Shown: positions 43 through 21,454 of the stretch, in pieces
Layout: every line of letters starts with the position of its first letter
How positions within the stretch are numbered: the stretch's first letter is position 1
NCBI GenBank assembly: GCA_902793325.1
Contig: CADBCY010000025.1
Coordinates: forward strand, 1 to 64,000
DNA length: 64,000 nt
DNA from: an uncultured Eubacteriales bacterium
GTDB lineage: Bacteria; Bacillota; Clostridia; Christensenellales; Aristaeellaceae
Direction: 5' to 3'
The notes under the pieces: generated by a model
Seen by the model: the letters and a program-made list of their open reading frames with translations, nothing else
Told to the model about the DNA's origin: nothing
Database searches by the model: none
Made by a program: the position numbers and the translations under genes

Positions 43-1398
43 ATGACTAACCGTACAGAGCAAAGAACGACCGATGAAGTGTCCCTGGCTTCCATCATGG
101 ACAAACTGGCGGACATTGAAGCGCGCATGCAGCGGCTCGGCCCTGGAGGTAAGATCATAAGCTGCTATAAACAAAAGGCGGGAGAAGGAGAAAGCGCTGT
201 TGACACTGAACCCTTTTTGGAGGTATCATCTGAACAGCCCCTTGAAAACTGCACAGAAGTGGAACAAATGCCATTGTCCGAAGAAGGAGACGAGACAATG
301 GCAACCAGACAGAGATTAAGGGTATGCGTAGGGTATAACGACGACGGCTCGCCGGTCATCAAGCATGTGACCGCGAAGACTGAGTTGGAGTTGGCGGATC
401 GCGTCGCCAAAGCGCTGCTGGATTCTGAGCGCCGCCGTGAATTTATGAAGGCAAACGAAGCGCCACAGGCCAAAGAAGCGCCGCAGAAGCCTGCGCTGCC
501 CATGTTTAAGGAATACGCCGAAGAGTGGTTCCGGGTGTACAAGGAGGGTCGCGTAAAGCCCACCACGGCGGGCAATTACCGTACGATCCTTGAATGGCAT
601 CTCTATCCGGCCTGGGGAGAGGTACGGTTGGACGAGATCACCACCAAGGGAATCCAGGAGTTCCTGAACACAAAAAAGGATAAGTCCCACAAGACCATCC
701 AGGAAATCCTGACGATGCTCAAAGCCGTCCTGGAGTCCGCGAAGCAGGACAGGCTGATCGACTTCAACCCTGCCGACGATCATCGGCTGGTGATTCCCTC
801 GAAGCGCAAGAAGGTGCGCGAAGCGCTGCCGATGGAGGCGGTGCAGGATATCATCGCCAACTTGGGCAAGCTGGAAACGATGGATCAGCGCTACATGGCG
901 CTGGCGATCTTCACCGGCATGCGGCGCGGGGAGATCATTGGGCTGAGGTGGGGAGATATTGATCTTGAGAATAATATCCTCCACGTCCAGCGGAACGTGA
1001 CATTCCCCAAAGGGACCAACGATCCCTACATCGGCACCACCAAGACGGAGAGCGGCGTGAGGGACATTCCCATCATGCCCATGCTGCTGGATTATCTCAA
1101 GCCCGGCGGTGAGCCGGATGCCTACGTGGTGGGAGACGAGAAAAAGCCCATCACCTTCAGCATCCACCGTCGCATGATGGAGCGCATCCGCCGCACCATC
1201 GACTTGCACGGCGCGTGCAGCCACGTCTTCCGACACAGCTTCGCCACCATGCTGAACGACGCGGGCGCTTCCGTCAAGACCATCCAAAGCATCATCGGGC
1301 AGAAAGACTTTAAGACCACCGCGGACCGCTATTGCCATCCCAGGGATAACCGGAAGCAGGAGGCGGTCGAGGGGGTGGACAAGCTGCTCTGCTCGTAA
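43..1398 (+). CDS. int: tyrosine recombinase/integrase of element A
   Basis: Site-specific recombinase of the phage integrase family, 451 aa. It has an N-terminal arm/AP2-like part, a SAM-like core-binding domain (about residues 150-250) and a C-terminal catalytic domain. Catalytic residues are visible: Arg294 in TGMRRGE, His394 and Arg397 in HVFRHS, and the nucleophile Tyr430 in ADRYCH. It lies about 300 bp from the tRNA-derived repeat, the usual place for an integrase that targets a tRNA 3' end. It closely resembles the integrase at 19809-21086. A second start, ATG at 298, has a clear SD (AAGGAGA) and is also conserved in the other copy, so a shorter form beginning MATRQRL is possible. The family is certain; which start is used is not. 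Confidence 0.95.
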   Translation: MTNRTEQRTTDEVSLASIMDKLADIEARMQRLGPGGKIISCYKQKAGEGESAVDTEPFLEVSSEQPLENCTEVEQMPLSEEGDETMATRQRLRVCVGYNDDGSPVIKHVTAKTELELADRVAKALLDSERRREFMKANEAPQAKEAPQKPALPMFKEYAEEWFRVYKEGRVKPTTAGNYRTILEWHLYPAWGEVRLDEITTKGIQEFLNTKKDKSHKTIQEILTMLKAVLESAKQDRLIDFNPADDHRLVIPSKRKKVREALPMEAVQDIIANLGKLETMDQRYMALAIFTGMRRGEIIGLRWGDIDLENNILHVQRNVTFPKGTNDPYIGTTKTESGVRDIPIMPMLLDYLKPGGEPDAYVVGDEKKPITFSIHRRMMERIRRTIDLHGACSHVFRHSFATMLNDAGASVKTIQSIIGQKDFKTTADRYCHPRDNRKQEAVEGVDKLLCS

Positions 1399-1656: not shown

Positions 1657-1692
1657 GAAATCGTGCAGTTCTAGCAAACTGCACGATTTTAG
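1657..1692 (-). terminator. terminator facing the tRNA-Met 3' sequence, element A copy
   Basis: TCGTGCAGTT and AACTGCACGA form a 10-bp perfect stem just outside the tRNA-derived repeat. Read on the minus strand it is followed by TTTCTTTTTG, a proper intrinsic terminator tail. It would end transcription of the tRNA-Met gene if this copy were joined to the tRNA body. Confidence 0.7.
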
Positions 1693-1738
1693 GTGGTACC
1701 GGCGATCGGATTCGAACCAATGACACTCCGGGTATGAA
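1693..1738. repeat. att site between elements A and B (46-bp direct repeat, tRNA-Met 3' half)
   Basis: Identical for 46 bp to 21377-21422, where the sequence is part of an intact tRNA-Met gene; here the match stops after GGGTATGAA and no 5' tRNA half follows. This is the expected product of integration into a tRNA 3' end. It serves as the left boundary of element B and the right boundary of element A. Confidence 0.92.
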
Positions 1739-2084
1739 TTGCCCAAATTGAACATAATAATCTGTGTTTCTACATTAATATTGCACAAATTAGAACGAAC
1801 AATAGTTAACGACACATTAACATTCTCTTGCTCCATCAAGTTTTCAAAGGTTCGCTTTTCCCGGACAGGATTGAATTTGGCGAATCTCCGGCTTCAATTT
1901 TGCAGGACGAGATTCAAAACCTCGCAAATCGGATTTCAAATTGACGTCGCTATCCTTCCAGCAACCCCCGATTCAGCGTTAAACAGCATAGTCTTCCATC
2001 CGAAACGCAAAACGAAATCACCTTGCATTATTTCGCGAAATATGATATGATGATTTCGCGAACAAGCGAATCGAGGTGTCGGCT
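1739..2084. other. left-end non-coding stretch of element B
   Basis: An AT-rich stretch between the att repeat and the first gene. The only open frame (1739-2050, plus strand) begins inside the att junction, has no SD and shows no recognisable protein. Such element ends usually carry integrase and excisionase binding sites, but I could not pick out convincing repeats here. Confidence 0.5.
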
Positions 2085-3920
2085 ATGAAGTATCTGAGCA
2101 TTCAGCAAGCGGCGCAGCAGTGGGGGGTCTCTCTCAGGCGCGCCCAGCAGCTGTGCAAGAGCGGTGCGATCGACGGCGTTGTGAAGGAGGGCCGTTCCTG
2201 GCGGATTCCCGTCCAGGCGCAATCTCCCGTGCGAGCAAAGCCGGTTGAAAGTCGGCACACCCTTCCTCTGCCCGTGGGCATCTCCGGCTACGTGGAGGCG
2301 GTCACTCGCTACTACTACATCGACAAGACTCTGCTGATCCGCGACTTCATCGACGCGCTGCCGAAGGTCTCGCTGTTCACCCGTCCCCGCCGCTTCGGCA
2401 AGACGTTGAACATGGACATGCTGCGTGTGTTCTTTGAACGCAGCGAGCAGGACACCTCCGTCTATTTCCAGGACAAGGCTATCTGGGCCTGCGGCGACTA
2501 CTACCGATCCTTCCAAGGCAAATACCCCGTGATCTACCTGTCTTTCAAGGACGTGAAGTACGCCTCGTGGGAGAACGCCCTCAAGGACATCGCCGCCATC
2601 ATCCGCAGCGAGTATGCCCGTCACGGCGAGCTACTGGACGGCCCGGCATGCAATACGGTGGAGAAGCAGGCGTTCCAGGCGATCATCGACGATCAGGCGG
2701 ACGAGGTGGCGCTCTCCCGTTCACTAGCTCTGCTCTCGGCCATGCTGCGCAAACATTACGGCATCGAGACTGTTATCATCATCGACGAATACGATACGCC
2801 AATTCAGCAGGGCTATGCCAGTGGCTATTACGATCAGGTCGTCGCCTTTGTGCGCAATCTGTTCTCCGGCGCGTTCAAGGACAATTCCAGCCTGGCCTAT
2901 GGCTTCATGACCGGCATCCTGCGCGTGGCGAAAGAGAGCATCTTCAGCGGCATGAACAATTTGAAGGTCAACACCATCATGGACGACCGTTACAGCGCGT
3001 ATTTCGGCTTCTCAAAAGAGGAAGTCGCGCAGATGCTGGCCCACTACGGCCACGCGGACAAGCTGGTTGAGGCCTGCGAATGGTACGATGGCTATCAGTT
3101 CGGCAGCGCGGAAATCTTCAATCCCTGGTCGGTCATCAACTATGTGGATGAAAACTGCTACCCCAAGGCGTTCTGGCAGTCCACCGGCAGCAACGAGATC
3201 ATTGGCGACATCCTCGCCGCTGCGACGCCGGAGATTATAGAAAACCTGCGCAAATTGATGCAGGGCGAAACCGTAACCACCTACGTGGACACGGGCGTGA
3301 TCTATCCGGAAGTCAAGAAGAACCCGACCAGCATCTACAGCTTCCTGCTGGTGGCCGGGTATCTTCGCTGTACAGAGATCATCCCCCAGAACGACGGCAA
3401 TTTCATGTGCAGGGTATCGATCCCCAACAAGGAAATCGCCTTTGTCTATGCGAAGGAGATCATTTCCCGGCTGCTGCCGGAGCGCGGCGAATCCACTGCG
3501 GCCGCGATCCAGCAGGCGATCTTCGAGCGAAACACCGAAGCCCTGCAGAAGCACATTTCCGCCTACCTGATGGAGACCATCAGCGTCTATGACACCGGCA
3601 GAGAGGCTTTCTATCAGGGCCTGATGATCGGCCTGTGTGCCATCCTCAACAACCGCTACATGGTGCGCTCGAACCGGGAATCTGGCTTCGGGCGATTCGA
3701 TATCCAGTTGAGCCCCCTGGAGAAAGGCCTGCCTGGCCTGGTTTTCGAGCTGAAAGCATCGAAAAAAGCGTCTGAAAGCCTCGATAAGCTCGCGACTGAA
3801 GCCCTCCAGCAAATCGAAGAGAAGCGCTACGAGACGGAATTGCGCGCCGCAGGAATTCAGGAGGTTCTTAAGATCGGCATGGCGTTTCGGGGGAAGGAGA
3901 TCGTGGTCAAGACGGAATAA
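2085..3920 (+). CDS. HTH-fused AAA-ATPase-like protein with PD-(D/E)XK nuclease domain
   Basis: 611 aa starting at ATG 2085, with SD GAGGTG just upstream; the GTG at 2076 overlaps that SD and is less likely. Residues 1-45 form an excisionase/MerR-like helix-turn-helix (IQQAAQQWGVSLRRAQQLCK). The middle matches the AAA-ATPase_like family (PF09820), with a degenerate P-loop RPRRFGKT and a Walker B IIIDEYD. The C-terminus fits the associated PD-(D/E)XK nuclease domain (PF08011), with GRFDIQL followed by VFELKA. Family members are common in gut Firmicutes and Bacteroidetes and their role is poorly defined; defence or genome maintenance is often proposed. It is the first gene inside the left att. 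The HTH may target it to DNA or regulate its own expression; this is inference. Confidence 0.85.
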   Translation: MKYLSIQQAAQQWGVSLRRAQQLCKSGAIDGVVKEGRSWRIPVQAQSPVRAKPVESRHTLPLPVGISGYVEAVTRYYYIDKTLLIRDFIDALPKVSLFTRPRRFGKTLNMDMLRVFFERSEQDTSVYFQDKAIWACGDYYRSFQGKYPVIYLSFKDVKYASWENALKDIAAIIRSEYARHGELLDGPACNTVEKQAFQAIIDDQADEVALSRSLALLSAMLRKHYGIETVIIIDEYDTPIQQGYASGYYDQVVAFVRNLFSGAFKDNSSLAYGFMTGILRVAKESIFSGMNNLKVNTIMDDRYSAYFGFSKEEVAQMLAHYGHADKLVEACEWYDGYQFGSAEIFNPWSVINYVDENCYPKAFWQSTGSNEIIGDILAAATPEIIENLRKLMQGETVTTYVDTGVIYPEVKKNPTSIYSFLLVAGYLRCTEIIPQNDGNFMCRVSIPNKEIAFVYAKEIISRLLPERGESTAAAIQQAIFERNTEALQKHISAYLMETISVYDTGREAFYQGLMIGLCAILNNRYMVRSNRESGFGRFDIQLSPLEKGLPGLVFELKASKKASESLDKLATEALQQIEEKRYETELRAAGIQEVLKIGMAFRGKEIVVKTE

Positions 3921-5084: not shown

Positions 5085-5245
5085 ACTATCCCCTCCTTCC
5101 TCGAATCAGATTATACCATATGAAAGAGAATAATGCAAGCAAAAATGTTGCGCGATTTGCAAGATACAGAACGATCCATAACAATATGCGAGGATAAATT
5201 GCAAATTTGCAACATCCCAACAATCTTCAGAAGCAAATATATGAT

Positions 5246-5275
5246 CCCCCTCTTTCCAGTGGGAGAGAGGGGGGT
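5246..5275 (-). terminator. probable terminator after the restriction operon
   Basis: CCCCCTCT and AGAGGGGG flank a short loop downstream of the Res stop. The minus-strand tail (ATCATATATTT) is only moderately T-rich; on the plus strand a run of seven T follows about 12 nt beyond the stem. It could serve both directions weakly. Confidence 0.45.
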
Positions 5276-5311
5276 TCTGCGTTTTTTTGCTTGCTGATAC
5301 CGTCTTCTTTT

Positions 5312-8089
5312 TCATAAACACATCTGTGCGATGATCCCGTCAACATCAGCGATGTTGTAGGAAACCGCGTTGCACCACTGTCCATACTCTCCAAGGCCGT
5401 TGATGGTCGCAATCCACTCTTGAAGAGCCTTTCTCTTCTCAACATCCCTGCGAGTTTCCTGCCCCTTTGTTTCCAGAATCAGCGTCTTCCCATTGTCCAG
5501 CCGAATCAGATAGTCCGGCAGATATTTGCGGACAACACCGTCGAAGACATACAGGATTTCAAAGCCCAAGTGATCGTTCTTTGCCCACGCCTTCACATGG
5601 GGATTCTTTTCGATGACGTAGGCTTCCGTTGCCTCCCAGGTGCTGTCATAAACACAATGGCTGATGTGTGACCGCTGGGTAATGTTGCAGGGCTTGCTTG
5701 TGAACCATGTCGGCATGTCGCCTGTTGAACGCACTTTTTTGCTGGGATCAAAGATCGGAACCGTTTTTTCCGTCTGTTCCAACTTGATGAAGCTCCAAAG
5801 GTGCTGAACAATCTTGTTCATGTTCATCATGAGGACAATGCGCTGCCGAAGTGGATCAGTGTTGAACAGCGGCGGGTTGATGACGATTGCGCCGCAGGCC
5901 AGGTACTCTTCCACCAGCCGAATCACCTGCCCCAACAGAGCAAACTTGGTTCCTTCCTTTTGCCAGGAGGCTTGCATCAACTCATAGACCTCTGCTGCCG
6001 CCTTGAAGATGATGGTCTGCATCCTCAATTCGGCGTCCAGCTTTTGCAGGTCAATTTCCGTGCATTTCGTCAAATCGGTCTGCGTATCGAGAACCGGCGC
6101 AAGGTCAGCCCTCAAGCGCGTTTCAGATGCTTCGATGTACAGCGTATCAATCTTATCGATGTCCAGGCTCAACCGATGCTTGAAAACGCGGTCAATGCGC
6201 ACGACATTCGGCCATGAGATTTGATATTCTGCGCGTTCCGGCACAACCTCCACCTGCGTCTTGGGCTTTGTGTTTGTCGGAGTGCCGGTTTCATCCGATT
6301 CGTGGGGCAGGAATGAAAATGGTATGCCAAAGATGTTCACGTATTCTGCCGTGAACATGTCACTGCCGGGCTCCAGGTCGTAGGAGGTTCTGCGCAATCC
6401 GCGCCCCACAACCTGCTCACATAATAGCTGACTGGAAAAGGCACGCAGGCCGAGAATGTGCGTGACCGTCTTGGCGTCCCAACCTTCGGTCAGCATGCCG
6501 ACAGAAATCACGTTTCTGATTTGTTCGCCCCGCTTGCCGCGCTGTCCAACCGTGTCAACGGTGTCTCGCAGGATGGCCGCAGCGTCCTTTTTACTGACCT
6601 TTGTGCCTTCTTCGGCGTCATCATCATTCTGTTCCGGCGCTGCCGCTTCGCCTGCCGCGTCCAACGTCTTGGAATCGATGTGAATGGTCAGTTCAGGCAC
6701 GCACAGTTCCGGCACGGGGATTCTGTTGTGATCAAAGGCATACTTGATTCGGGCGGCGGTTTCCGTGCGGTTTGCCACGGTGATCATCACGGGCGGGACA
6801 ACAGACCCCGCTTCCTTCCATGCCTTGAACTGTTCCAGCCAGTCTTTACCCAACAGATAGTAAGCCTGTGTCAGCAGGTCGGGCAACGGTTCTTCCTGCG
6901 GTGCACGCCGGTTGATGTCATCCTTGACGGTTTCATCCGCATAGATGTGATACAGCTTGGATCGGAAGGTCGCAGCGTCCGGCATGCCATCATCGCGCAC
7001 GACAACGCGGGGCGTCTTCACCAGGCCGGATTCGATGCCGTCATTCAAACCAAAATCGCTGACGATCCAGCCGAACAGTGCTTCTTCGTCGTTTCTCTTG
7101 CCGGACGGGGCAAAGGGCGTGGCTGAAAAGTCGTAGCAGGACAGGATGTTGCGCGTCTTGTGGATGCGATCCAGGCCGCTGACCCAAATCGTCGCCTCTT
7201 CCTCTGCGTCCTTCTGCTCTTTTGACAGTTTGCCCTTGTTCTCAGGATTCTTGCGCCATGCGTGATGCGCCTCGTCGTTGATGACCAGGATGTTGGAGGC
7301 ATTCGCCATCTCGCCCAGCACTTCGCGGGTGTAGGCTTCGTCGCTCTTCGGCCCGCGCTTGTCCACGCTTCGCCGTTTGAGCAGCGTTGCTTCATCTTCC
7401 CATGCCAGCGCCTGCCAGTTTGTGATCATCACCTTGCCCTGACGTAGCTTGTCCATCAGGCTGACCGGCACGACGTTGAATTGCGCGTAGTAGTTGTCAT
7501 TGCCGCCCGTCTGCAACACCTGCAAGCGACTCTTGACCGTCAGCCCAGGCGCGACGATGAACACATACTTGGAGAAGCGTCGGTCTTGGGGATAGGTCAC
7601 TTTGTTGCACACCATCCAGGCGATCAGCATAGCCATCACAGTGGTTTTGCCGCCGCCTGTACATAGCTTTGTGCAAATGCGCCGGAAATCGCCGCCGTCG
7701 GTGGGAATGTCCACGCCAACCTTGTCCGACGCTGGCGCTTCGGTCAGCCAAATCAGCGTTTCCATCGCGTCCATCTGACAAAAGAAGAACGGGTATTGCC
7801 GCGCTTCGTTGTCGTTCCAGTGTTCCAACAGCTTGCGGGTGACGCCGGTCACGCCGGGATAGCCCGCCTGCCGCCATGCCTTCACGCGGGGGCGAATCAG
7901 GTTCACCAGCGGCAATTCGATAAACTGGCCGATGTCATTGTACTGGTTGGAGCCCTGACCGGCGATGAAATAGCCAGCGGGACGGCGGCCAGGTTCCATG
8001 ATGAACTTCTGGCCGTTCAGGTCGTACTTCCAATGGTGTTCCGGCTCACGAAAGGCCGAATTGATGATTAGCTGTTGAATGCCCGCCAT
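5312..8089 (-). CDS. type III-like restriction enzyme Res subunit (DEAD/DEAH helicase-nuclease)
   Basis: 925 aa. It has an SF2 helicase core with Walker A CTGGGKTT (residues 143-150) and Walker B DEAH (272-275), a second RecA lobe with VISVGMLTEGWDAKTVTHI and an arginine-finger region CEQVVGRGLRRTSY, and a C-terminal PD-(D/E)XK nuclease (Pro858-Asp859, Glu873-x-Lys875 in LPDYL...LETKG). This layout is that of type III Res proteins, closest in my recollection to the BPTD_3080 family. Its ATG overlaps the Mod stop codon (TAATG), so translation is coupled. It would translocate on unmodified DNA and cut it, guided by Mod. It is the last gene of a leftward four-gene operon. Confidence 0.92.
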   Translation of the reverse strand: MAGIQQLIINSAFREPEHHWKYDLNGQKFIMEPGRRPAGYFIAGQGSNQYNDIGQFIELPLVNLIRPRVKAWRQAGYPGVTGVTRKLLEHWNDNEARQYPFFFCQMDAMETLIWLTEAPASDKVGVDIPTDGGDFRRICTKLCTGGGKTTVMAMLIAWMVCNKVTYPQDRRFSKYVFIVAPGLTVKSRLQVLQTGGNDNYYAQFNVVPVSLMDKLRQGKVMITNWQALAWEDEATLLKRRSVDKRGPKSDEAYTREVLGEMANASNILVINDEAHHAWRKNPENKGKLSKEQKDAEEEATIWVSGLDRIHKTRNILSCYDFSATPFAPSGKRNDEEALFGWIVSDFGLNDGIESGLVKTPRVVVRDDGMPDAATFRSKLYHIYADETVKDDINRRAPQEEPLPDLLTQAYYLLGKDWLEQFKAWKEAGSVVPPVMITVANRTETAARIKYAFDHNRIPVPELCVPELTIHIDSKTLDAAGEAAAPEQNDDDAEEGTKVSKKDAAAILRDTVDTVGQRGKRGEQIRNVISVGMLTEGWDAKTVTHILGLRAFSSQLLCEQVVGRGLRRTSYDLEPGSDMFTAEYVNIFGIPFSFLPHESDETGTPTNTKPKTQVEVVPERAEYQISWPNVVRIDRVFKHRLSLDIDKIDTLYIEASETRLRADLAPVLDTQTDLTKCTEIDLQKLDAELRMQTIIFKAAAEVYELMQASWQKEGTKFALLGQVIRLVEEYLACGAIVINPPLFNTDPLRQRIVLMMNMNKIVQHLWSFIKLEQTEKTVPIFDPSKKVRSTGDMPTWFTSKPCNITQRSHISHCVYDSTWEATEAYVIEKNPHVKAWAKNDHLGFEILYVFDGVVRKYLPDYLIRLDNGKTLILETKGQETRRDVEKRKALQEWIATINGLGEYGQWCNAVSYNIADVDGIIAQMCL

Positions 8090-10644
8090 TATTCATCACC
8101 CAGCCTTATCACTTTCATGCTCTCAATGCCGCGATTGTCGATGATCTTGACGGCGATTTTGCTGCCGGGTTCCGCTTGGAACCACAGCGATTCACAGCCC
8201 GCGTACTGTCCAATCAGTTCCTGATTGATTTCGGCCTTCAGGGTCTTCGCCAGCTTGTTCCAGCCATCCTTGCTGCCACCCATCGGGAAGAACACCTGCT
8301 TCGGGGCGATGCACATGCCGTCATAGTCGGTGTCCAGCATCCACATGGCAATGTTGGCCGTGGTGCCGGAGTCCACCTTGCCCGCCTTCACGTCGTAGTA
8401 ATCGTAGCCTCTGACCTTTACCTTGAACCGCTTTTTGCTTCTGCCATCGCGGATCAGTTCCACATCGGGCTGACCCACCAGCCAGAAGGATTGATCGGAA
8501 GAACGCTTCTTCTTCAGATCATCGGTCATCAGGTCTGTGTTCATCTGTGCCTTCAACAGCGTCACGTTGGGGAAGATGGCGTCCTCAATGAAGCTGGCCG
8601 CGTCAGGGTCAAACTGGAAGGCGGCGAAGATGACCAACTGCGGCGTGGGATGCAGCCGTTCTACTTCTTCCAATGCCATCGCAACCATGCGGGAGTCAAG
8701 AGGTTTCGTTTCACCGGCAAAGCAGATGACCGCGCGGCGCGGCTTGTCTTCCTTGGTTTCCGCTTCTGCTTGCAGGTACTTGGTGCCGGAAAGCGGCTCT
8801 ACACGGCTGAACTCCAGGCGTACGCCGCCGCGCCCCATGATGCCTGTGGCGCGAAGCTGATCCCGCCAGTCAGTCTGCTTCGCGGACATGTCTTCATCCG
8901 CGTCATCCACGTCATCCAGCGCGCGAACCACCGGCGCAGGCAGGGCTTCCACGGTGAAGGGCCCCGTGATGCGGACCTTGCTCTTGTCCACTTCCGGCTG
9001 ATCGTAGAGCGTTTCCGTGGCCGGAGGCTCATTGTTGGCAATGGATTTCAGTGTGATATGCGGCACGGTCTTGTACACAAAGCCGCTGCCAACGCCCTGC
9101 TCCTCGTGTGCCAGCTTGTAGTAATCGAAGGTCGCCGTCATCAGGCGCTGCTTCGCCAGGGTGATGGCGACGCGGGAAGTATCGCAGGTAATCCAGCGAC
9201 GGCCCCACTGTTCAGCGACATAGGCTGTGGTGCCGCTGCCGCATGTAATGTCCAGAACAAGGTCGCCGGGATCTGTTGTCATGAGCATACAGCGAGTAAT
9301 AGTCTTTGTTCCTGTTTGTACTACGTATATTTTGTCATCTGTAAAACTACCCGTTCCTGTATCCGACCAAAGATTTGTAATAGGATAAACGGGAAAATCA
9401 TCAATATAACGAACATAGCACAGACTGTTTTCTGCTGTTGTTACTCTATTCTTTTCTAAAAGGCGTTTCATTCCCTCCTCATTAGTCTTCCAGAATCCAC
9501 GACCAGGACCATACTTTTTTCCATTGATTTCAACTAAATAGCTGGTAGTGTCTCCTCCACTTTGACTTGTCAAGTCACTCTTTCTAAATATCCTTGCACC
9601 ATCAGGCAATAATTCCGGATGTGCGATTTCTTCTTTTGTCATAGGCCTTCGTGTCCCGTCAGGCAAATCAACATTTTTATATACTCCAGATTTATCAGTC
9701 AGCATGGTTTTATTCAAATACAATTGACGGTATTTCACTTGCTTTTTATCTTTAGCATACCAGAGTAAATAATCAGAGACTGAAGCAAGTGAACCAGAAG
9801 TTTGACTTGATGTTTTGAAAAATGTAATAAAACTTACGCAGTTTTCAGGCCCAAATATCTCGTCCAGCAACTCACGTACATGATGGACGTTTTCATCGCT
9901 AATTTGTATGAACACGCTTCCACTATCTGCAAGCAATTCTCTTGCTAACAACAGTCTGTCACGTAAATAGGTCAGATAGGAATGAATACCAAGTTCCCAA
10001 GTATCACGGAATGCCTTGATCATTTCCGGTTCCTGCGTCAAATCTTCATCTTTTTTGTCTTTCACGCTTCGCTTGTCAACAAAAGGCTGGAAATTGGAAC
10101 CGTACTTGATGCCGTAGGGCGGGTCGATGTACACCATCTGCACCTGTCCCGCCATGCCCTCCTTTTCCAGCAGGGAGTTCATGACAATCAGACTGTCGCC
10201 CGCAATCAGGCGGTTCGTCCAGTCTACGCCGTGCTGATAAAACTGAATGGCGGCCTGACGGCGCTTCATGCGCTCCAACGGCGTTTCCATGCCAAGCATG
10301 GAGAACATGGACATCTGCCACTCTCCGTCAGAGTCTTCGCCAACGCCGGTGATAGCCTGCACGTTGCGGATGATCTCATGGGGCTTGATGGATTCATGAA
10401 TGTGGATGGAGGATGTCGGCACGTTGAAGGTCATGCCTTCAGCCTTCCCCGCCCATTGAAGCGTCGGGTCGATATGCGGATCGTACTGATAGGTCTTGAC
10501 CTTTTCCTCTGCTTTGTCGTGCTGGGCCATGCCAACAGGAGGATTGTTCACGCGCTTTTTGTCATCGTGCGTGTAGGCTTCTATGTCCCGCAGCTTGCTG
10601 ATGTCTGCGTCTGACATGATGGTCTTTCTGGGCTTGCGTGCCAT
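8089..10644 (-). CDS. type III-like DNA methyltransferase Mod (beta-class N6-adenine/N4-cytosine)
   Basis: 851 aa. Motif IV DPPY is at residues 174-177 and the AdoMet motif I, DITCGSGTT, at about 465-473; this order is that of beta-class amino-methyltransferases. The segment between them holds the target recognition region. That segment (about 9285-10030) is clearly AT-rich: line 9301-9360 has 22 G/C of 60 against 35 of 60 at 8281-8340, which suggests exchange of the specificity domain. The C-terminal 300 residues look like an interaction module (KRFKVKVRGYDYYDVKAG). It starts right after the radical SAM stop (TAA then ATG) with SD AAGGAGG. It protects host DNA and gives specificity to Res. 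Confidence 0.92.
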   Translation of the reverse strand: MARKPRKTIMSDADISKLRDIEAYTHDDKKRVNNPPVGMAQHDKAEEKVKTYQYDPHIDPTLQWAGKAEGMTFNVPTSSIHIHESIKPHEIIRNVQAITGVGEDSDGEWQMSMFSMLGMETPLERMKRRQAAIQFYQHGVDWTNRLIAGDSLIVMNSLLEKEGMAGQVQMVYIDPPYGIKYGSNFQPFVDKRSVKDKKDEDLTQEPEMIKAFRDTWELGIHSYLTYLRDRLLLARELLADSGSVFIQISDENVHHVRELLDEIFGPENCVSFITFFKTSSQTSGSLASVSDYLLWYAKDKKQVKYRQLYLNKTMLTDKSGVYKNVDLPDGTRRPMTKEEIAHPELLPDGARIFRKSDLTSQSGGDTTSYLVEINGKKYGPGRGFWKTNEEGMKRLLEKNRVTTAENSLCYVRYIDDFPVYPITNLWSDTGTGSFTDDKIYVVQTGTKTITRCMLMTTDPGDLVLDITCGSGTTAYVAEQWGRRWITCDTSRVAITLAKQRLMTATFDYYKLAHEEQGVGSGFVYKTVPHITLKSIANNEPPATETLYDQPEVDKSKVRITGPFTVEALPAPVVRALDDVDDADEDMSAKQTDWRDQLRATGIMGRGGVRLEFSRVEPLSGTKYLQAEAETKEDKPRRAVICFAGETKPLDSRMVAMALEEVERLHPTPQLVIFAAFQFDPDAASFIEDAIFPNVTLLKAQMNTDLMTDDLKKKRSSDQSFWLVGQPDVELIRDGRSKKRFKVKVRGYDYYDVKAGKVDSGTTANIAMWMLDTDYDGMCIAPKQVFFPMGGSKDGWNKLAKTLKAEINQELIGQYAGCESLWFQAEPGSKIAVKIIDNRGIESMKVIRLGDE

Positions 10645-11409
10645 TTAGTCTTCCTCCTTCTCAACCAGCGTACCATCCTTGATGTGGCAGCGAATGCCGT
10701 GATCCTGACAGAATGCCATGACCTGATGGGCGCAGGCGTTATAAAACTGCTGGTGCTGTTTGTATTCCGAGACAATCTTGTTGTAGTGCAGCCTTCCGAA
10801 GATGATGTTGTCTGTGAAAGCCACCGCTTCCAGTATCTCAGCCAAATCCTGTTCGATCATGTTTGGTGTGGGGTAGGGCTCGATGCTCACCCACGTCGGA
10901 CAGCCTCTCTCATGCAGCACTCTCAGCGCGTCCAGCCTTTCGGCAATCGGCGCGGCATGGGGTTCGTATCTCTGGGTAAAACCTTCATCCAGTGAAACCA
11001 ACGTGATGCCGTACTCGTTTTGCATTGGCAGGTCGGCAAGCTCTGGCGGCAGAATGCCCTTCGTCAGCACCGAACACAAGACCCCTTGCGCGTTTGCCCT
11101 ACGCAGTATCTCCAGGCTCATCTCCGCAATCTCAGGGAAACCATACATGAACGGGTCAGTGGTGAAGCAGAGATGGAGTTTTTGAATGCGATCCCTGTAG
11201 CGGGGCAATTCCTTGTCCAACAGTTCCAGCGCGTTTTCCACGATTTGCGGCCTGCACCACTCTTCGTAGGTCTTGACTTTGCCAAACCGCTTTGCCATCA
11301 TGAATGCGTAGCATGGATAAACACATCCATGAGCGCAACCCTGAACATGATTCAGCGTATAATCGCCATACTCAACGCCGGTCTTGTAAATCAGTGATTT
11401 TCTTATCAT
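10645..11409 (-). CDS. radical SAM protein, SplB-like, partner of TcmP
   Basis: 254 aa. The cluster motif is at Cys25, Cys29 and Cys33 in GCAHGCVYPCYA, a CX3CX3C spacing rather than the usual CX3CX2C. TIM-barrel hallmarks follow, with strand LHLCFTTDPF and strand VSIEPYPTPN. The general pattern resembles spore photoproduct lyase-like radical SAM proteins. It sits between a TcmP-like gene and the restriction methyltransferase with gaps of 10 and 0 nt, so the four proteins are made together. Its substrate is unknown; DNA or nucleic-acid modification is a reasonable guess from context only. Confidence 0.85.
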   Translation of the reverse strand: MIRKSLIYKTGVEYGDYTLNHVQGCAHGCVYPCYAFMMAKRFGKVKTYEEWCRPQIVENALELLDKELPRYRDRIQKLHLCFTTDPFMYGFPEIAEMSLEILRRANAQGVLCSVLTKGILPPELADLPMQNEYGITLVSLDEGFTQRYEPHAAPIAERLDALRVLHERGCPTWVSIEPYPTPNMIEQDLAEILEAVAFTDNIIFGRLHYNKIVSEYKQHQQFYNACAHQVMAFCQDHGIRCHIKDGTLVEKEED

Positions 11410-11419
11410 TACAGTAGTC

Positions 11420-12322
11420 CTATCTCTTGTCTTGCAGAATGTAGTTTGCCACTTTCAGTGCCAAGCCCTGTGCTTTGTAATCAGGATTGGAAACTGCAAA
11501 ACAGAACATGAAAAGTGGACTGCGTTTTGAGTTATACAGCACGCGGGAATGCTGTGAAACCTTGGGGAAAAGCACACCCAGCCTTTTTTCGATGTAGGCT
11601 TTTAGTTTGTCAATGCTGACATTGCGTTTGATGGATGGCGTATCAAACATACTGATTTGCGGGTTCTCTTCGTAAAACTCTTGCTCCCAACTATTATCAC
11701 CAAAAATGGAGTTGAGTTTTTCTCTCCACTTCGGATCAATGTTGCCATCCTTGGTCATCATACGGTTCGCCGCACTGAAAGGGAACAGATACCAAACGTC
11801 GATAGCGCCGGTTTTTGCTACTGCTTGCAGCGTTTCCCACTTCACGTCAGCCGCATAGGGATCAAGAAATAGGACTGCACGGTGATTATGCCAGTCGATT
11901 GTCTGCTGACATAGTTCAAGCAAAACAGTATTGCAGTCCTCACCTTTTCTAATGGTCACATCAGATTTTCGATGGGGATAATCTGTTTCAATCAGCTTTT
12001 CCAGCTCAGTCGCAAACTTCTTGTTCTTTTCGATAAAGTAATAGTGTGAAAACGGCTCTTTTGCACTTAGCGCAAGCGTGGCTGAACCGGGGATGATCTC
12101 CTCTACGGGTTCCTTCACTTCCATGTCAATGCCAATCTGTCCAGGGACACAACCCTTGGTATCGCTACCAAGATTGATGTGTCCTGTGCCAGCGAAAGCA
12201 TCAATGTAAATCAGGTCAAAAGGCTGGTTTTTCAAAGCCGTAACATAAAAATTCAGATAGCCAGACAAGATGTCCAGCTTTTCAACGGTCCAAGCGCCGC
12301 CGAAACTCTGCTTTGTACCCAT
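11420..12322 (-). CDS. tcmP: three-Cys-motif partner protein TcmP
   Basis: 300 aa. The N-terminus WTVEKLDILSGYLNFYVTAL followed by the AdoMet-type motif YIDAFAGTG (residues 39-47) is the signature of TcmP (TIGR04474), a family named for its habit of sitting next to a three-Cys-motif protein, exactly as here. A DPYA motif (154-157) occupies the place of the methyltransferase motif IV, so a Rossmann-fold methyltransferase-like activity is likely but unproven. It is the first gene of the operon, with its own promoter upstream. Its base composition is lower in GC than the relaxase and partition genes of the same element. Confidence 0.85.
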   Translation of the reverse strand: MGTKQSFGGAWTVEKLDILSGYLNFYVTALKNQPFDLIYIDAFAGTGHINLGSDTKGCVPGQIGIDMEVKEPVEEIIPGSATLALSAKEPFSHYYFIEKNKKFATELEKLIETDYPHRKSDVTIRKGEDCNTVLLELCQQTIDWHNHRAVLFLDPYAADVKWETLQAVAKTGAIDVWYLFPFSAANRMMTKDGNIDPKWREKLNSIFGDNSWEQEFYEENPQISMFDTPSIKRNVSIDKLKAYIEKRLGVLFPKVSQHSRVLYNSKRSPLFMFCFAVSNPDYKAQGLALKVANYILQDKR

Positions 12323-12361
12323 GCTTTCGTCTCCGATCTATTTGAATAGCTTAACAGTATT

Positions 12362-12391
12362 ATACCATGAGCGGGCAAGGCGTTGCAACAG
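12362..12391 (-). promoter_or_regulatory. promoter of the TcmP/radical SAM/Mod/Res operon
   Basis: On the minus strand TTGCAA is followed, after about 18 nt, by a perfect TATAAT roughly 40 nt before the tcmP start. Coordinates are good to a few bases. Confidence 0.7.
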
Positions 12392-12526: not shown

Positions 12527-13741
12527 CTATCCGCCTAAGCGCCTATGCCGGCCAAGGATGGCATCGCAAATATCGCCGACAAGGCAGCGGCGGACGTGCA
12601 GTTTTCCCAAGGCATCATATTCGGATTCGTCGTGCTGCCAAAGCTCGACAGCCAGGAACCACAGCCACTCTGTAAGGTCTGGCGTTTTTTTCTCTTTCCC
12701 GGGTATTATATAGCCTGCCGGCACATTATCAATGCGTAGGTGGAGATGGGCTTTGGCGGTTGGAAAGTCGATGCGGACGCATAATTCCTGCCTTGCTCCG
12801 GCAGAAATAGCCCATTTAGGCACATAGGCGGAACAATTTCGTTGTTCGCCACTAAAGCTTGCTTTGCAAACGACAATCAGATCCGCAGTGCCGGGGATGA
12901 CCTCCGGGTGATCTGCGGAACATGCGAAGAACGGTATATTGCCCACATGAAACCTTTTGTGGGATGAGATATACGCGCACAGCTTTTCCGCGGCCTGTCG
13001 GGCTTCCGAACTCAATTCAGGAGCCTGCACGCTCTCGTGTCTATTGTTCTCCTCTATACGTCTTTTCAGAAAGCAAAGCGCATCTGCCTCGATGTGCTTT
13101 GCCCGGCTGAGGCTGATATGCGCTTGCGCGGCGGCTTCTGTGAGTGGGAGTGTTCCCTTGCGGGACGCCGTGTTCCCATTCCTGTTGCCAAGCTGATAGC
13201 GCAGCATGATAAACTCCCGGTCGTGGGGATTGAGTGCCTTCAGGGCTTCCCATAGCGGCCGGGCGTTTTCTTTGCGCTCGTACCATGCCTCCGGCGTCAG
13301 CTCCCGTTCGTCCGGGATACACTCGGAAAGCGACGAATCCGTGTCCTCATCGTAGCTGCCATCCAGGCGAAGGACAGCCCGTACCTTGTCTGATTTCAGA
13401 AGGCGCAGCGGCGATTCCGCGTATTCGCGTTTGGCTTCTGTGCGCATGGCATTCAGCACGGTTTTCTTTGCAAACGCCAGAAAGGCCGGGGCTTTGTTGG
13501 GCTCATAGCGTTCTGCGGCGCGAAGCAGGGCCATATTCCCTGCCTGGATCAGATCGTCAATCGCGGCGCTGGTGGCGAAAACGTCCATGCTAAGCATTTT
13601 GTGGAAGGATTCTGCCAATTTGCCGACCCATCGACGGTTCCGATCAATCAATACCGCTTTGGCATAATCATCCCCGGCCTGGATGGCGGCACATAGCATT
13701 TCGTTGGTGTAATCAGCATGCTTCTTCATTTGTCTTTTCAT
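12527..13741 (-). CDS. sigma-70-like protein with C-terminal extension
   Basis: 404 aa. Residues about 15-110 look like sigma region 2 (AAIDDLIQAGNMALLRAAERYEP then FLAFAKKTVLNAMR). Residues about 150-230 look like region 4 (LNPHDREFIMLRYQLGN, then an HTH AAAQAHISLSRAKHIEADAL). About 170 more residues follow with no recognised family. The start, ATG 13741 or ATG 13729, overlaps the end of the XRE gene by up to 29 nt, so the two are co-translated. An element-encoded sigma factor would switch on element genes, for example at transfer; this is inference. The C-terminal part may sense a signal or bind an anti-sigma. Confidence 0.75.
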   Translation of the reverse strand: MKRQMKKHADYTNEMLCAAIQAGDDYAKAVLIDRNRRWVGKLAESFHKMLSMDVFATSAAIDDLIQAGNMALLRAAERYEPNKAPAFLAFAKKTVLNAMRTEAKREYAESPLRLLKSDKVRAVLRLDGSYDEDTDSSLSECIPDERELTPEAWYERKENARPLWEALKALNPHDREFIMLRYQLGNRNGNTASRKGTLPLTEAAAQAHISLSRAKHIEADALCFLKRRIEENNRHESVQAPELSSEARQAAEKLCAYISSHKRFHVGNIPFFACSADHPEVIPGTADLIVVCKASFSGEQRNCSAYVPKWAISAGARQELCVRIDFPTAKAHLHLRIDNVPAGYIIPGKEKKTPDLTEWLWFLAVELWQHDESEYDALGKLHVRRCLVGDICDAILGRHRRLGG

Positions 13742-16361: not shown

Positions 16362-16426
16362 CTGGCTCATTTCATTCGCAGCATGGCAAGGGCCATGACA
16401 GACCATTCAGAGAAAAGGAGATGTTT

Positions 16427-16819
16427 ATGAACAAACCCAGAAACAACCCATTGATTCACAAGCTGACCGTCCGCTTGGACGAGCCCATGTATGCCAGGCT
16501 GAACGACATCGCAGGCAGATCCAACCAGACCCTTGTGGAGTGCGTGCGCGATCTGATCGTCAAGGGAAAGGTCAGCGTGCGCGAAGTCCGGTCCGTGGAA
16601 TTGCCCGGTCTGCGCGAGCTGACCACGGAGTTCAGCCGGATTGGAAACAACCTGAACCAGATCGCGTGGAAGCTGAACAGCGGCATGCCCATGGATGCCC
16701 GGATGCACGCCGGGCTTCAGGAGTGCGTGAGGATGCTGTATGAGATGAAGTACAAGGTGGACGCCCTGGGAGGTGAGCGCAACGGCCATCCTCAAGCATA
16801 TCGCCGTGAAGAGCAGTAA
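16427..16819 (+). CDS. mobC: MobC-family relaxosome accessory protein
   Basis: 130 aa from ATG 16427; SD AAGGAG lies 6 nt upstream and directly abuts the alternative ATG 16421. It has an N-terminal ribbon-helix-helix-like segment (KLTVRLDEPMYARLNDIAG) and the MobC signature LTTEFSRIGNNLNQIAWKLN near residues 65-85. MobC proteins bind oriT and help the relaxase open the strand. The relaxase gene overlaps its end by 47 nt. Confidence 0.88.
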   Translation: MNKPRNNPLIHKLTVRLDEPMYARLNDIAGRSNQTLVECVRDLIVKGKVSVREVRSVELPGLRELTTEFSRIGNNLNQIAWKLNSGMPMDARMHAGLQECVRMLYEMKYKVDALGGERNGHPQAYRREEQ

Positions 16820-19808: not shown

Positions 19809-21086
19809 GTGAAGAATTGGGAAGACCTGACTCAACTGGACAGAATTGAAAACGCGCTCGGAGAACTGCTGAACTCTTGCAACGGTGGGATGAATATGGT
19901 AAAATCGGCTGTGAAGCCGGAGGCTTTGCCGAACCTTGAAAACGCAAGAGAATGTAATGTGCCGTTGTCTGTGAAAGGAGACGAGACAATGGCAAATCGA
20001 GCCAGACTCAGGGTATGCGTCGGCTATAACGACGACATGAGCCCTGTCATCAAGAGCATCACCGCAAACAGCGAACTGGAGCTCGCCGACCGTATCGTGC
20101 GGGCTGTGCTATCCTCAGAACGTCGAAAGGAATTCGTAAAGGAAAGCGACCCCCAAGAGCAGAAGGAGCCAGAGAAGCCGCCGTTGCCCACATTTCGGGA
20201 GTACGCGGAGGAATGGCTGAAACTGTACAAGGAGGGGAAGCTCAAGCCTACGACGATGGGAGACTATCGCATGGTGCTGAACGCCCATCTCTATCCCGCG
20301 TGGGGCGACAAGAGATTGGACGAGATCACCACTCGCGGGATTCAGGAATTCTTGAACAGCAAGAAAGACAAAGCTCGCAAGACCATCCAGGACATGATTA
20401 TGCTTCTGCGTGTGATACTGGAGTCGGCGCTGAGAGATCAGCTGATCGACGTCAATCCCGCCAGTGACCGGCGATTGGTAAACCCCTCCAATCGCAAGAC
20501 GGTGCGTGAGGCGCTGCCCGTGGAGGATGTGCAGGACATCATCGCCAACCTGGGCAAGCTGGAGACGATGGATCAGCGCTACATGGCGCTGGCGATCTTC
20601 ACCGGCATGCGGCGCGGTGAGATCATCGGGTTGCGGTGGGAAGATATAGATCTGAGCGCCAATGTGCTCCATGTTCGGCGCAATGTGACGTTTCCCAAGG
20701 GCGACAACCAGCCGTACATCGGAACGCCAAAGACCGAAAGCGGCAATCGGGACGTGCCAATCATGTCTGCGCTGTTGGAATACCTGAAACCCGTTGGCAA
20801 ACCGAACGCCTATGTGGTGGGGGATGATGTCAAGCCCATCACATTCAGCATCCACCGTCGAATGATGGAGCGCATACGCCGCACCATCGACTTGCACGGC
20901 GCGTCCACGCACGTGTTCCGCCACAGCTTTGCGACGATGCTGAACGACGCTGGAGCGTCGGTCAAGACGATCCAAAGCATCATCGGACAGACGGACTTCA
21001 AAACTACTGCGGATCGCTACTGCCATGCGCGCGACATCCGAAAGCATGAGGCGGTGCAGGGGGTGGACAAGCTGCTCTGTTCCTGA
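19809..21086 (+). CDS. int: tyrosine recombinase/integrase of element B
   Basis: 425 aa if begun at GTG 19809 (SD AGGAGG is 14 nt upstream, rather far). A second in-frame start, ATG 19989 (residue 61), has a better-placed SD (AAAGGAGA) and yields a protein beginning MANRARLRVCVGYNDD, as in the element A copy. Catalytic residues are Arg268, His368, Arg371 and nucleophile Tyr404. The catalytic half is nearly the same as that of the integrase at 43-1398, while the first 80 residues differ much more. It catalyses integration and excision at the tRNA-Met 3' end about 290 bp downstream. Confidence 0.95.
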   Translation: MKNWEDLTQLDRIENALGELLNSCNGGMNMVKSAVKPEALPNLENARECNVPLSVKGDETMANRARLRVCVGYNDDMSPVIKSITANSELELADRIVRAVLSSERRKEFVKESDPQEQKEPEKPPLPTFREYAEEWLKLYKEGKLKPTTMGDYRMVLNAHLYPAWGDKRLDEITTRGIQEFLNSKKDKARKTIQDMIMLLRVILESALRDQLIDVNPASDRRLVNPSNRKTVREALPVEDVQDIIANLGKLETMDQRYMALAIFTGMRRGEIIGLRWEDIDLSANVLHVRRNVTFPKGDNQPYIGTPKTESGNRDVPIMSALLEYLKPVGKPNAYVVGDDVKPITFSIHRRMMERIRRTIDLHGASTHVFRHSFATMLNDAGASVKTIQSIIGQTDFKTTADRYCHARDIRKHEAVQGVDKLLCS

Positions 21087-21340: not shown

Positions 21341-21376
21341 AATTCGTGCAACCTGTACAGATTGCACGAATTTCAT
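21341..21376 (-). terminator. terminator of tRNA-Met carried by element B
   Basis: TTCGTGCAA and TTGCACGAA arms lie immediately 3' of the tRNA CCA end on the minus strand, followed by ATTATTTTTTG. The same arrangement with different arm sequences is found at 1657-1692, showing that each element supplies its own tRNA terminator. Confidence 0.75.
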
Positions 21377-21422
21377 GTGGTACCGGCGATCGGATTCGAA
21401 CCAATGACACTCCGGGTATGAA
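21377..21422. repeat. att site at tRNA-Met (right boundary of element B)
   Basis: 46-bp direct repeat identical to 1693-1738. It covers the tRNA-Met 3' end from the anticodon loop to CCA plus one base, so integration leaves the tRNA intact. Confidence 0.92.
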
Positions 21423-21454
21423 CCGGATTCTCTAGCCAACTGAGATACGCCGGC
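21378..21454 (-). tRNA. tRNA-Met (CAT), integration target
   Basis: 77 nt with full cloverleaf: acceptor GCCGGCG paired to CGCCGGT, T-loop GGTTCGAATCC, anticodon loop TTCATAC with anticodon CAT, and encoded CCA. The anticodon stem lacks the three G-C pairs of the initiator, so this is elongator Met (an Ile CAT tRNA cannot be excluded by eye). Its 3' half is the att core. Confidence 0.93.

What the first reader, a model, noticed from the sequence alone, without database searches (positions are those of the whole stretch)
5312..12391. Four-gene TcmP / radical SAM / Mod / Res operon on a mobile element
Seen: one promoter (about 12362-12391) drives tcmP, a three-Cys radical SAM gene, a beta-class methyltransferase and a type III-like helicase-nuclease, with gaps or overlaps of 10, 0 and -1 nt (TAATG). 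Known: TcmP regularly pairs with three-Cys proteins, and Mod/Res form restriction systems. Inferred: tight coupling suggests a restriction system extended by radical SAM chemistry, perhaps an extra DNA mark or self-protection step. Type III loci of the textbook kind do not carry the first two genes.
Basis: partly seen in the sequence, partly recalled or inferred. Interest (0 to 1): 0.78.

Follow-up and report, generated by a model that had tools for sequence, protein, structure and literature searches.

The report
Radical-enzyme defence cassette riding restriction genes
A pair of enzymes of unknown function, one folded like a nucleic-acid methylase and one like a DNA-repairing radical enzyme, travels from bacterium to bacterium attached to many kinds of DNA-restriction systems, and here sits in one operon with a restriction system on a mobile element.

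Summary
The four genes, their order, spacings and mobile setting are as described. TcmP and the radical SAM gene (rSAM) form a strict pair: TcmP is directly upstream of rSAM in 96 of 100 non-redundant relatives. The whole four-gene operon recurs in an Oscillospiraceae genome (L081). Restriction genes lie within six genes in 54 of 101 loci, against 0 of 28 control stretches. But the pair is no fixed extension of this Mod/Res family: 66 of 69 other loci with a BPTD_3080-like Res lack it. It sits as well beside a second Mod/Res family, type I, type II and IIG-like, BREX and other defence genes. PADLOC already lists TcmP plus a DUF5131 protein as untested candidates (PDC-M41, PDC-M30). The partner here differs: spore-photoproduct-lyase fold, CX3CX3C instead of CX3CX2C, below the DUF5131 cut-off. 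Best reading: a mobile accessory defence cassette, probably a two-enzyme nucleic-acid modifier, docked onto a type III-like R-M system that does not depend on it. Chemistry and target are unknown and inferred from fold. New variant of a known (candidate) kind.

The parts
12359..12388 (-). promoter-like site (TTGCAA, 18 nt, TATAAT, extended TG) before tcmP
   Evidence: 10 of 12 consensus matches; number of such sites in the region is within chance, only the position is apt
11420..12322 (-). TcmP (short form, 300 aa): methyltransferase-fold partner protein, DAFAGTG at 41-47, DPY at 154-156
   Evidence: TIGR04474 177.5 bits; PADLOC PDC-M41A 326.6 bits; AF2 pLDDT 91.2; RlmJ/Trm1-type fold
10645..11409 (-). 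SPL-like radical SAM protein with CX3CX3C (C25, C29, C33)
8089..10644 (-). Mod: beta-class DNA methyltransferase (DPPY at 174 before GSGTT at 469)
   Evidence: N6_N4_Mtase 112 bits; PADLOC MTase_III 588 bits; motifs
5312..8089 (-). Res: BPTD_3080 family helicase-nuclease (Walker A 145, DEAH 272, SAT 322, motif VI 559, PD...ETK 858-875)
   Evidence: NF046055 1088.9 bits; motifs; D859 and E873 identical in 8 of 8 aligned sequences, K875 in 7 of 8
1686..1738 (.). att-like repeat (left end of the mobile element)
   Evidence: 96% over 53 nt with 21370-21422
21370..21422 (.). att-like repeat overlapping tRNA-Met (right end)
19809..21086 (+). tyrosine integrase of the element
   Evidence: PF00589 77.6 bits
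16773..18377 (+). MobA/VirD2-type relaxase; MobC-like gene at 16421-16819
   Evidence: PF03432 60.5 bits; PF05713 28.8 bits

Best explanation
Two modules lie in one operon on an integrative mobilizable element. (1) A self-contained type III-like R-M pair of the BPTD_3080 family: Mod methylates host sites, and Res (helicase plus PD-(D/E)XK nuclease) destroys DNA without the mark. (2) A two-gene accessory defence cassette, TcmP plus a spore-photoproduct-lyase-like radical SAM protein, a variant of PADLOC's candidate systems PDC-M41/PDC-M30. Inferred mechanism: TcmP, a nucleic-acid-methyltransferase-fold protein, binds or pre-methylates a nucleic acid, and the radical SAM partner carries out radical chemistry on the base. 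This would give a second layer of defence, or support to whichever R-M-like system the cassette is docked to. Shown: the strict pairing, the linkage to several R-M types, partner exchange, intact motifs and predicted folds. Inferred: that both proteins act on nucleic acid, that they act together, and that they act in defence. Not known: DNA or RNA, host or phage target.
For: TcmP directly upstream of rSAM in 96 of 100 non-redundant loci, 92 of those 96 within -60..+35 nt, most often a 4-nt overlap. R-M genes within six genes in 54 of 101 loci against 0 of 28 control stretches, Fisher p = 2.5e-8. Neighbours named by Pfam or PADLOC: HsdM and HsdR (L064), BrxC (L089), type III Res (L133, L174), type IIG-like (L110, L131), DrmD-like helicase (L091). 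Full operon repeated in L081. Sister rSAMs L075 (ModB/ResB) and L081 (ModA/ResA), SH-aLRT 96, quick tree. The TcmP + DUF5131 form sits at the same place before a Mod 72% identical (L065) and between ResA and ModA (L247). Folds: TcmP to RlmJ/Trm1, rSAM to spore photoproduct lyase. PDC-M41A 326.6 bits.
Against: No paper giving an activity for TcmP or a three-Cys partner appeared in the listings and passages seen; the library lacks most subscription journals and preprints. R-M linkage may reflect defence-island clustering rather than cooperation; 47 of 101 loci show no R-M gene by my HMMs within six genes. TcmP has DP(Y/F) where RlmJ-type methyltransferases have DPPY (recalled), so it may not methylate. 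The HMMs used for the count were built from families seen at these loci, which favours the test set over the controls. Mod/Res of this family mostly occur without the cassette (66 of 69).
Confidence: 0.6

Rival explanations
1. The four genes are one integrated restriction system: TcmP/rSAM write an extra base mark that Mod or Res reads, or that shields the host.
For: Tight coupling (0 and -1 nt) and recurrence of the complete operon in L081; a Mod directly downstream of rSAM in 20 of 101 loci, 13 of those 20 with gaps of 0-17 nt.
Against: 66 of 69 other loci with a BPTD_3080-like Res have no cassette in the stretch examined, so Mod/Res do not need it; the same pair is docked to unrelated systems with their own methyltransferases.
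Confidence: 0.15
2. Passenger or island effect: the pair is an independent module (defence, repair or addiction) that only shares promoters and mobile elements with R-M genes.
For: 47 of 101 loci show no R-M hit within six genes; gene order relative to R-M varies: upstream, downstream, embedded, opposite strand.
Against: Repeated operonic docking, with 9-nt gaps before ModB in 7 of 20 and 0 nt before ModA in 2 of 2; two different cassette types at the same place before ModA (window and L065).
Confidence: 0.35
3. Repair or guard function: the SPL-like enzyme reverses lesions or modifications on host DNA or tRNA caused by restriction or by phage effectors.
Against: The SPL N-terminal part is missing (model 1-245 aligns to SPL 66-341) and the cluster motif differs (CX3CX3C); a general repair enzyme would not be expected to follow R-M genes.
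Confidence: 0.2

Closest known systems
PADLOC candidates PDC-M41 and PDC-M30 (TcmP + DUF5131/Gp37-Gp68 protein)
   Same: TcmP here scores 326.6 bits to PDC-M41A; a three-Cys partner is adjacent; it sits with immune systems, which is how PDCs were found ('guilt-by-embedding', passage in PMC12988326; the original preprint was not read)
   Different: The partner scores only 20.2 bits to PDC-M41B, against 366 bits for a true DUF5131 protein (L065), and has CX3CX3C rather than CX6CX2C
BPTD_3080 (NF046055) type III-like Mod-Res systems
   Same: Res above the curated cut-off; beta-class Mod directly upstream
   Different: 66 of 69 other loci with a Res of this kind (own HMM) carry no TcmP/three-Cys cassette in the stretch examined
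Spore photoproduct lyase (SplB)
   Different: Cluster motif CX3CX3C not CX3CX2C (the 4 lyase-family proteins read all have CX3CX2C); N-terminal ~65 residues absent; Phe82 at the place of the SPL residue mutated in PDB entries as C140, with an invariant Cys81 next to it (the position of C140 in the alignment rests on recall and may be off by one)
RlmJ (23S rRNA A2030-N6 methyltransferase) and Trm1 (tRNA G26)
   Different: DP(Y/F)x instead of DPPY (RlmJ motif recalled); a long-form TcmP has a C-terminal extension with a weak winged-helix match (E 0.0021, below its cut-off)
Hna locus of Sinorhizobium meliloti
   Same: A table in PMC12445080 lists a TcmP gene (SMa2243) right after the phage-defence helicase Hna (SMa2245); its note says putative transcription units are grouped (one passage seen)
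   Different: Hna is a different defence protein; the passage reports no test of TcmP

Membership tests
BPTD_3080 family restriction endonuclease (NF046055) | full-length match above the curated score (800 bits) | tested here: met
   1088.9 bits over residues 5-922
Type III R-M | beta-class Mod, motif IV (DPPY) before motif I | tested here: met
   DPPY at 174, GSGTT at 469; PADLOC MTase_III 588 bits
Type III R-M | Res with helicase motifs and a C-terminal PD-(D/E)XK nuclease | tested here: met
   motifs; D859/E873 identical in 8 of 8, K875 in 7 of 8; PADLOC REase_III only 33.7 bits, so a distant branch
Type III R-M | ATP-dependent cleavage needing two opposed sites; hemimethylated product | not testable with these tools
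   needs biochemistry
PDC-M41 / PDC-M30 | TcmP subunit (A) | tested here: met
   PDC-M41A 326.6 bits, E 5.5e-98
PDC-M41 / PDC-M30 | DUF5131-type three-Cys subunit (B) | tested here: not met
   PF07505 20.4 bits against a gathering score of 28.9; PDC-M41B 20.2 bits over residues 9-62 only
PDC-M41 / PDC-M30 | anti-phage activity | not testable with these tools
   no experiment seen in the listings and passages
Spore photoproduct lyase | CX3CX2C cluster motif | tested here: not met
   CX3CX3C in 101 of 101 rSAMs
Spore photoproduct lyase | SPL radical SAM fold | tested here: met
Radical SAM superfamily | curated Pfam score and cluster cysteines | tested here: met
   PF04055 41.1 bits, cut-off 29.5; three invariant Cys
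RlmJ | DPPY catalytic motif (recalled) | tested here: not met
   DPYA in the window; DP(Y/F) in 102 of 106 TcmP proteins scanned, the other four being one DPNQ and three without a regex match
RlmJ | class I methyltransferase fold of RlmJ/Trm1 type | tested here: inconclusive

The most novel reading that the evidence does not exclude
TcmP plus a three-Cys SPL-like radical SAM protein is a general helper of methylation-based immunity: it changes phage nucleic acid, for example by removing or altering the hypermodified bases that shield phage DNA, so that whichever R-M-like system it is docked to can act. That would explain why one cassette accompanies type I, II, IIG-like, III and BREX systems and is exchanged between them. 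It would be, to my knowledge, the first radical SAM DNA-base 'eraser' or 'writer' in bacterial immunity, using an unusual CX3CX3C cluster site.
Probability: 0.13. Interest if true: 0.9.

Novelty: new variant of a known kind. Interest (0 to 1): 0.52.

Why it matters
TcmP/three-Cys pairs are annotated in many genomes, yet no functional paper on them appeared in the searches made here (in an open-access library only). The finding gives a compact, intact, four-gene test object and a clear evolutionary statement: the pair moves as a unit and docks onto several R-M types. If the pair modifies or demodifies nucleic acid, it would add radical chemistry to restriction-based immunity.

Tried and rejected
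Considered and rejected: (a) TcmP/rSAM as a constant part of BPTD_3080 systems: 66 of 69 other loci lack it. (b) rSAM as a true spore photoproduct lyase: motif and N-terminus differ. (c) rSAM as a DUF5131 protein: below the gathering score. (d) The PA0069/Rv2578c radical SAM families: far below cut-offs (53.2 of 360 and 43.5 of 430 bits). (e) A single-protein scan of viral contigs with Res found no relative; the alignment-based scan later found 45. (f) No solved structure matches the rSAM by sequence (at E 0.001, at E 1). (g) A scan for repeats flanking the L081 operon found only an 8-nt match. (h) Passages of PMC7641849, PMC12255303 and PMC7159879 and of PMC13092281 were looked at for radical SAM or TcmP links to R-M loci; none concerned TcmP. 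PMC12429752 (passage) only lists TcmP among prophage gene products. The third paper (PMC7387457) was not opened. One search listed 20 of 394 papers, most about unrelated meanings of 'TCMP'. (i) Promoter- and terminator-like sites in the region are within shuffled expectation.

Limits of the counts: 379 genome relatives exist but only the best 80 were returned, biased to close relatives. Of 120 loci gene-called, 115 held an rSAM-cluster gene. Four of the other five have DUF5131 instead; the fifth, L085, has an adjacent TcmP and rSAM that my simple gene caller missed, and it is not in the counts. 14 of 115 were dropped as near-copies. Controls: 40 stretches asked for, 34 returned, 28 of at least 9 kb used, from same-class genomes, not from the same genomes. 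The R-M HMMs were trained on the test loci. Of the 63 viral and genome loci searched for the cassette, 38 are shorter than 20 kb, so a distant cassette could be missed; L240 was left out of the 69 for want of a called Res gene, L217/L218 and L223/L227 are near-copies that were counted, and some weak members (L259-L261, about 25% identity) may lie outside the curated family. Per-protein PADLOC tables exist for only 10 large neighbours; for 64 others there are tallies only.

A regex slip mended: one search gave spacing 3-3 in 100 of 101; the odd one (L090) has an extra upstream Cys and keeps CX3CX3C.

Full report
OBSERVATION. Gaps are 10 nt (tcmP-rSAM), 0 nt (rSAM-mod) and -1 nt (mod-res, TAATG), read from the sequence. 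Families: TcmP TIGR04474 177.5 bits; Radical_SAM PF04055 41.1 bits; Mod N6_N4_Mtase 112 bits; Res NF046055 (BPTD_3080) 1088.9 bits, cut-off 800. A promoter-like site lies at 12388-12359, but the number of such sites in the region is within chance; a single transcript is inference. Mod has DPPY at 174 before GSGTT at 469 (beta class). Res has Walker A, DEAH, SAT, motif VI and a C-terminal PD...ETK; D859 and E873 are identical in 8 of 8 aligned sequences and K875 in 7 of 8.

ELEMENT. A 53-nt repeat at 1686-1738 recurs (96%) at 21370-21422, 19,684 bp away, overlapping tRNA-Met 21378-21454. Between the repeats lie a tyrosine integrase, a MobA/VirD2-type relaxase, a MobC-like gene, an actin-like gene and a DUF5906 gene. 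This fits an integrative mobilizable element with the operon as cargo. A second integrase at 43-1398 lies just outside the left repeat and suggests a neighbouring element.

THE PAIR. A search of 341 same-class genomes for TcmP found 11 above cut-off. In all 11 a three-Cys protein is adjacent or one gene away: the rSAM type in 7, the DUF5131 type in 4 (DUF5131 confirmed by Pfam for one of the four, and by my HMM and the motif in all four). From an rSAM alignment, a scan of genome contigs found 379 relatives, of which the best 80 were returned, and viral contigs gave 28. After removing near-copies, 101 of 115 rSAM loci remained. TcmP lies directly upstream on the same strand in 96 of the 100 that have an upstream gene, most often with a 4-nt overlap. 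The exceptions are L069 (TcmP one gene away, opposite strand), L095 (by eye the tail of a TcmP at a contig start), L103 and L120.

R-M LINKAGE. None was found in 28 control stretches from same-class genomes (0 of 477 genes); Fisher p = 2.5e-8 for six genes. The HMMs were trained on the test loci, which favours them. A Mod follows rSAM directly in 20 of 101: ModA (the window's family) in 2, ModB (a second N6_N4_Mtase family, with a ResIII-type Res behind it in the two loci scanned by Pfam, L061 and L066) in 18. 13 of these 20 have gaps of 0-17 nt. Neighbours named by Pfam or PADLOC: HsdM and HsdR with a gene between them that looks like HsdS by eye (L064), BrxC (L089), type III Res (L133, L174), type IIG-like (L110, L131), a DrmD-like helicase (L091), and an Orf5/HEC-06-type protein with a type II REase (L159). 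One of the ten proteins, the large gene before the L081 operon, had no PADLOC match and is a PEP-utilising enzyme. Among 64 further neighbours scanned, tallies include HindIII-type (2), Mrr (2), FokI (1) and McrBC (1) domains, beside ordinary metabolic genes.

DOES THIS MOD/RES NEED THE PAIR? No. I looked at 69 other loci with a Res of this kind by HMM. Of 7 plasmid loci, none has TcmP, rSAM or DUF5131 in any ORF. Of 18 same-phylum genome loci, none; of 44 viral-contig loci, 3. Those 3 carry TcmP + DUF5131: L223 and L227 are alike, with the pair downstream on the opposite strand, and L247 has the pair between ResA and ModA. So 66 of 69 lack it. 38 of the 63 viral and genome loci are shorter than 20 kb, so a distant cassette could escape.

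EXCHANGE. L081 carries the full operon: TcmP, rSAM, Mod 69.5% and Res 82.3% identical to the window's, with gaps -4, 0, -4. Upstream are a PEP-utilising enzyme and an NAD-synthase gene; the other flanking genes were judged by eye only and none looked like a mobile-element gene. So the four genes can stand as a unit. In the rSAM tree (quick method), the sister of L081 is L075, which carries ModB/ResB (SH-aLRT 96); the window branches just outside. In L065 a TcmP + DUF5131 cassette precedes a Mod 72% identical over 311 aligned residues; the contig then ends. Two cassette types at one operon position, and two R-M families behind sister cassettes, speak for docking of a common function rather than a fixed four-gene machine.

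KNOWN KINDS. PADLOC models PDC-M41A and PDC-M30A match TcmP forms, and PDC-M41B/M30B match DUF5131. PMC12988326 (passages) says PDCs were found by 'guilt-by-embedding' and that validation is pending for most; the source preprint is not held and was not read. The window has subunit A (326.6 bits) but its partner fails as DUF5131 (20.4 bits against 28.9). Hence: a variant, not a member. PMC12445080 (one table passage) lists a TcmP gene beside the defence gene hna. No paper on TcmP function was seen.

MECHANISM AND VERDICT. Most likely: a type III-like R-M system that does not depend on the cassette, with an accessory cassette in front of it. By fold, the cassette combines a nucleic-acid-methyltransferase-like protein with a lyase-like radical SAM enzyme. 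That the two act together on nucleic acid in defence is inferred from strict pairing, folds and neighbourhood. The boldest reading not excluded is that the cassette alters or removes protective base modifications on phage DNA and so helps any methylation-based system (probability 0.13).

Noticed in passing
window 43-1398 and 19809-21086: Two related tyrosine integrases 19.7 kb apart (78% and 67% over two 300-nt blocks); with the att-like repeat between them this suggests two mobilizable elements stacked at one tRNA-Met site.
   Followed up: partly
window 2076-3920: HTH + AAA-ATPase_like + PDDEXK_9 protein of 614 aa inside the same element, no PADLOC match; possibly another conflict gene.
   Followed up: no
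window 12527-13741: 404-aa protein with a sigma-70 region 2 match and a region 4 match just under its cut-off, ending 204 nt upstream of tcmP on the same strand; may influence the operon.
   Followed up: no
window 5243-5276: 15-pair hairpin just after the end of res; its T-rich tail is on the plus strand, so it is not a canonical terminator for the operon.
   Followed up: no
G000 contig C1, locus L071 6290-10873: A second Mod/Res-like pair (652 and 873 aa) in the same genome, weakly related to ModA/ResA and without a TcmP or rSAM hit in 19 kb.
   Followed up: partly
L098, L121, L123, L125, L157, L161 and others: Tandem long TcmP + short TcmP before one rSAM and ModB; in L123, L125, L157 and L161 a small regulator of one cluster stands before them (Cro/C1-type by Pfam for the L048 member). 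Some long TcmPs have C-terminal extensions with weak winged-helix matches.
   Followed up: partly
L053 5232-12811 (Planktothrix plasmid): Same Mod-Res family with an AAA_15 ATPase gene and a 232-aa unknown gene between mod and res: this R-M family seems to collect accessory genes.
   Followed up: partly
L173: Longest branch of the rSAM tree (1.02 against a median of 0.25), with two Dcm-type genes four and five genes upstream.
   Followed up: no
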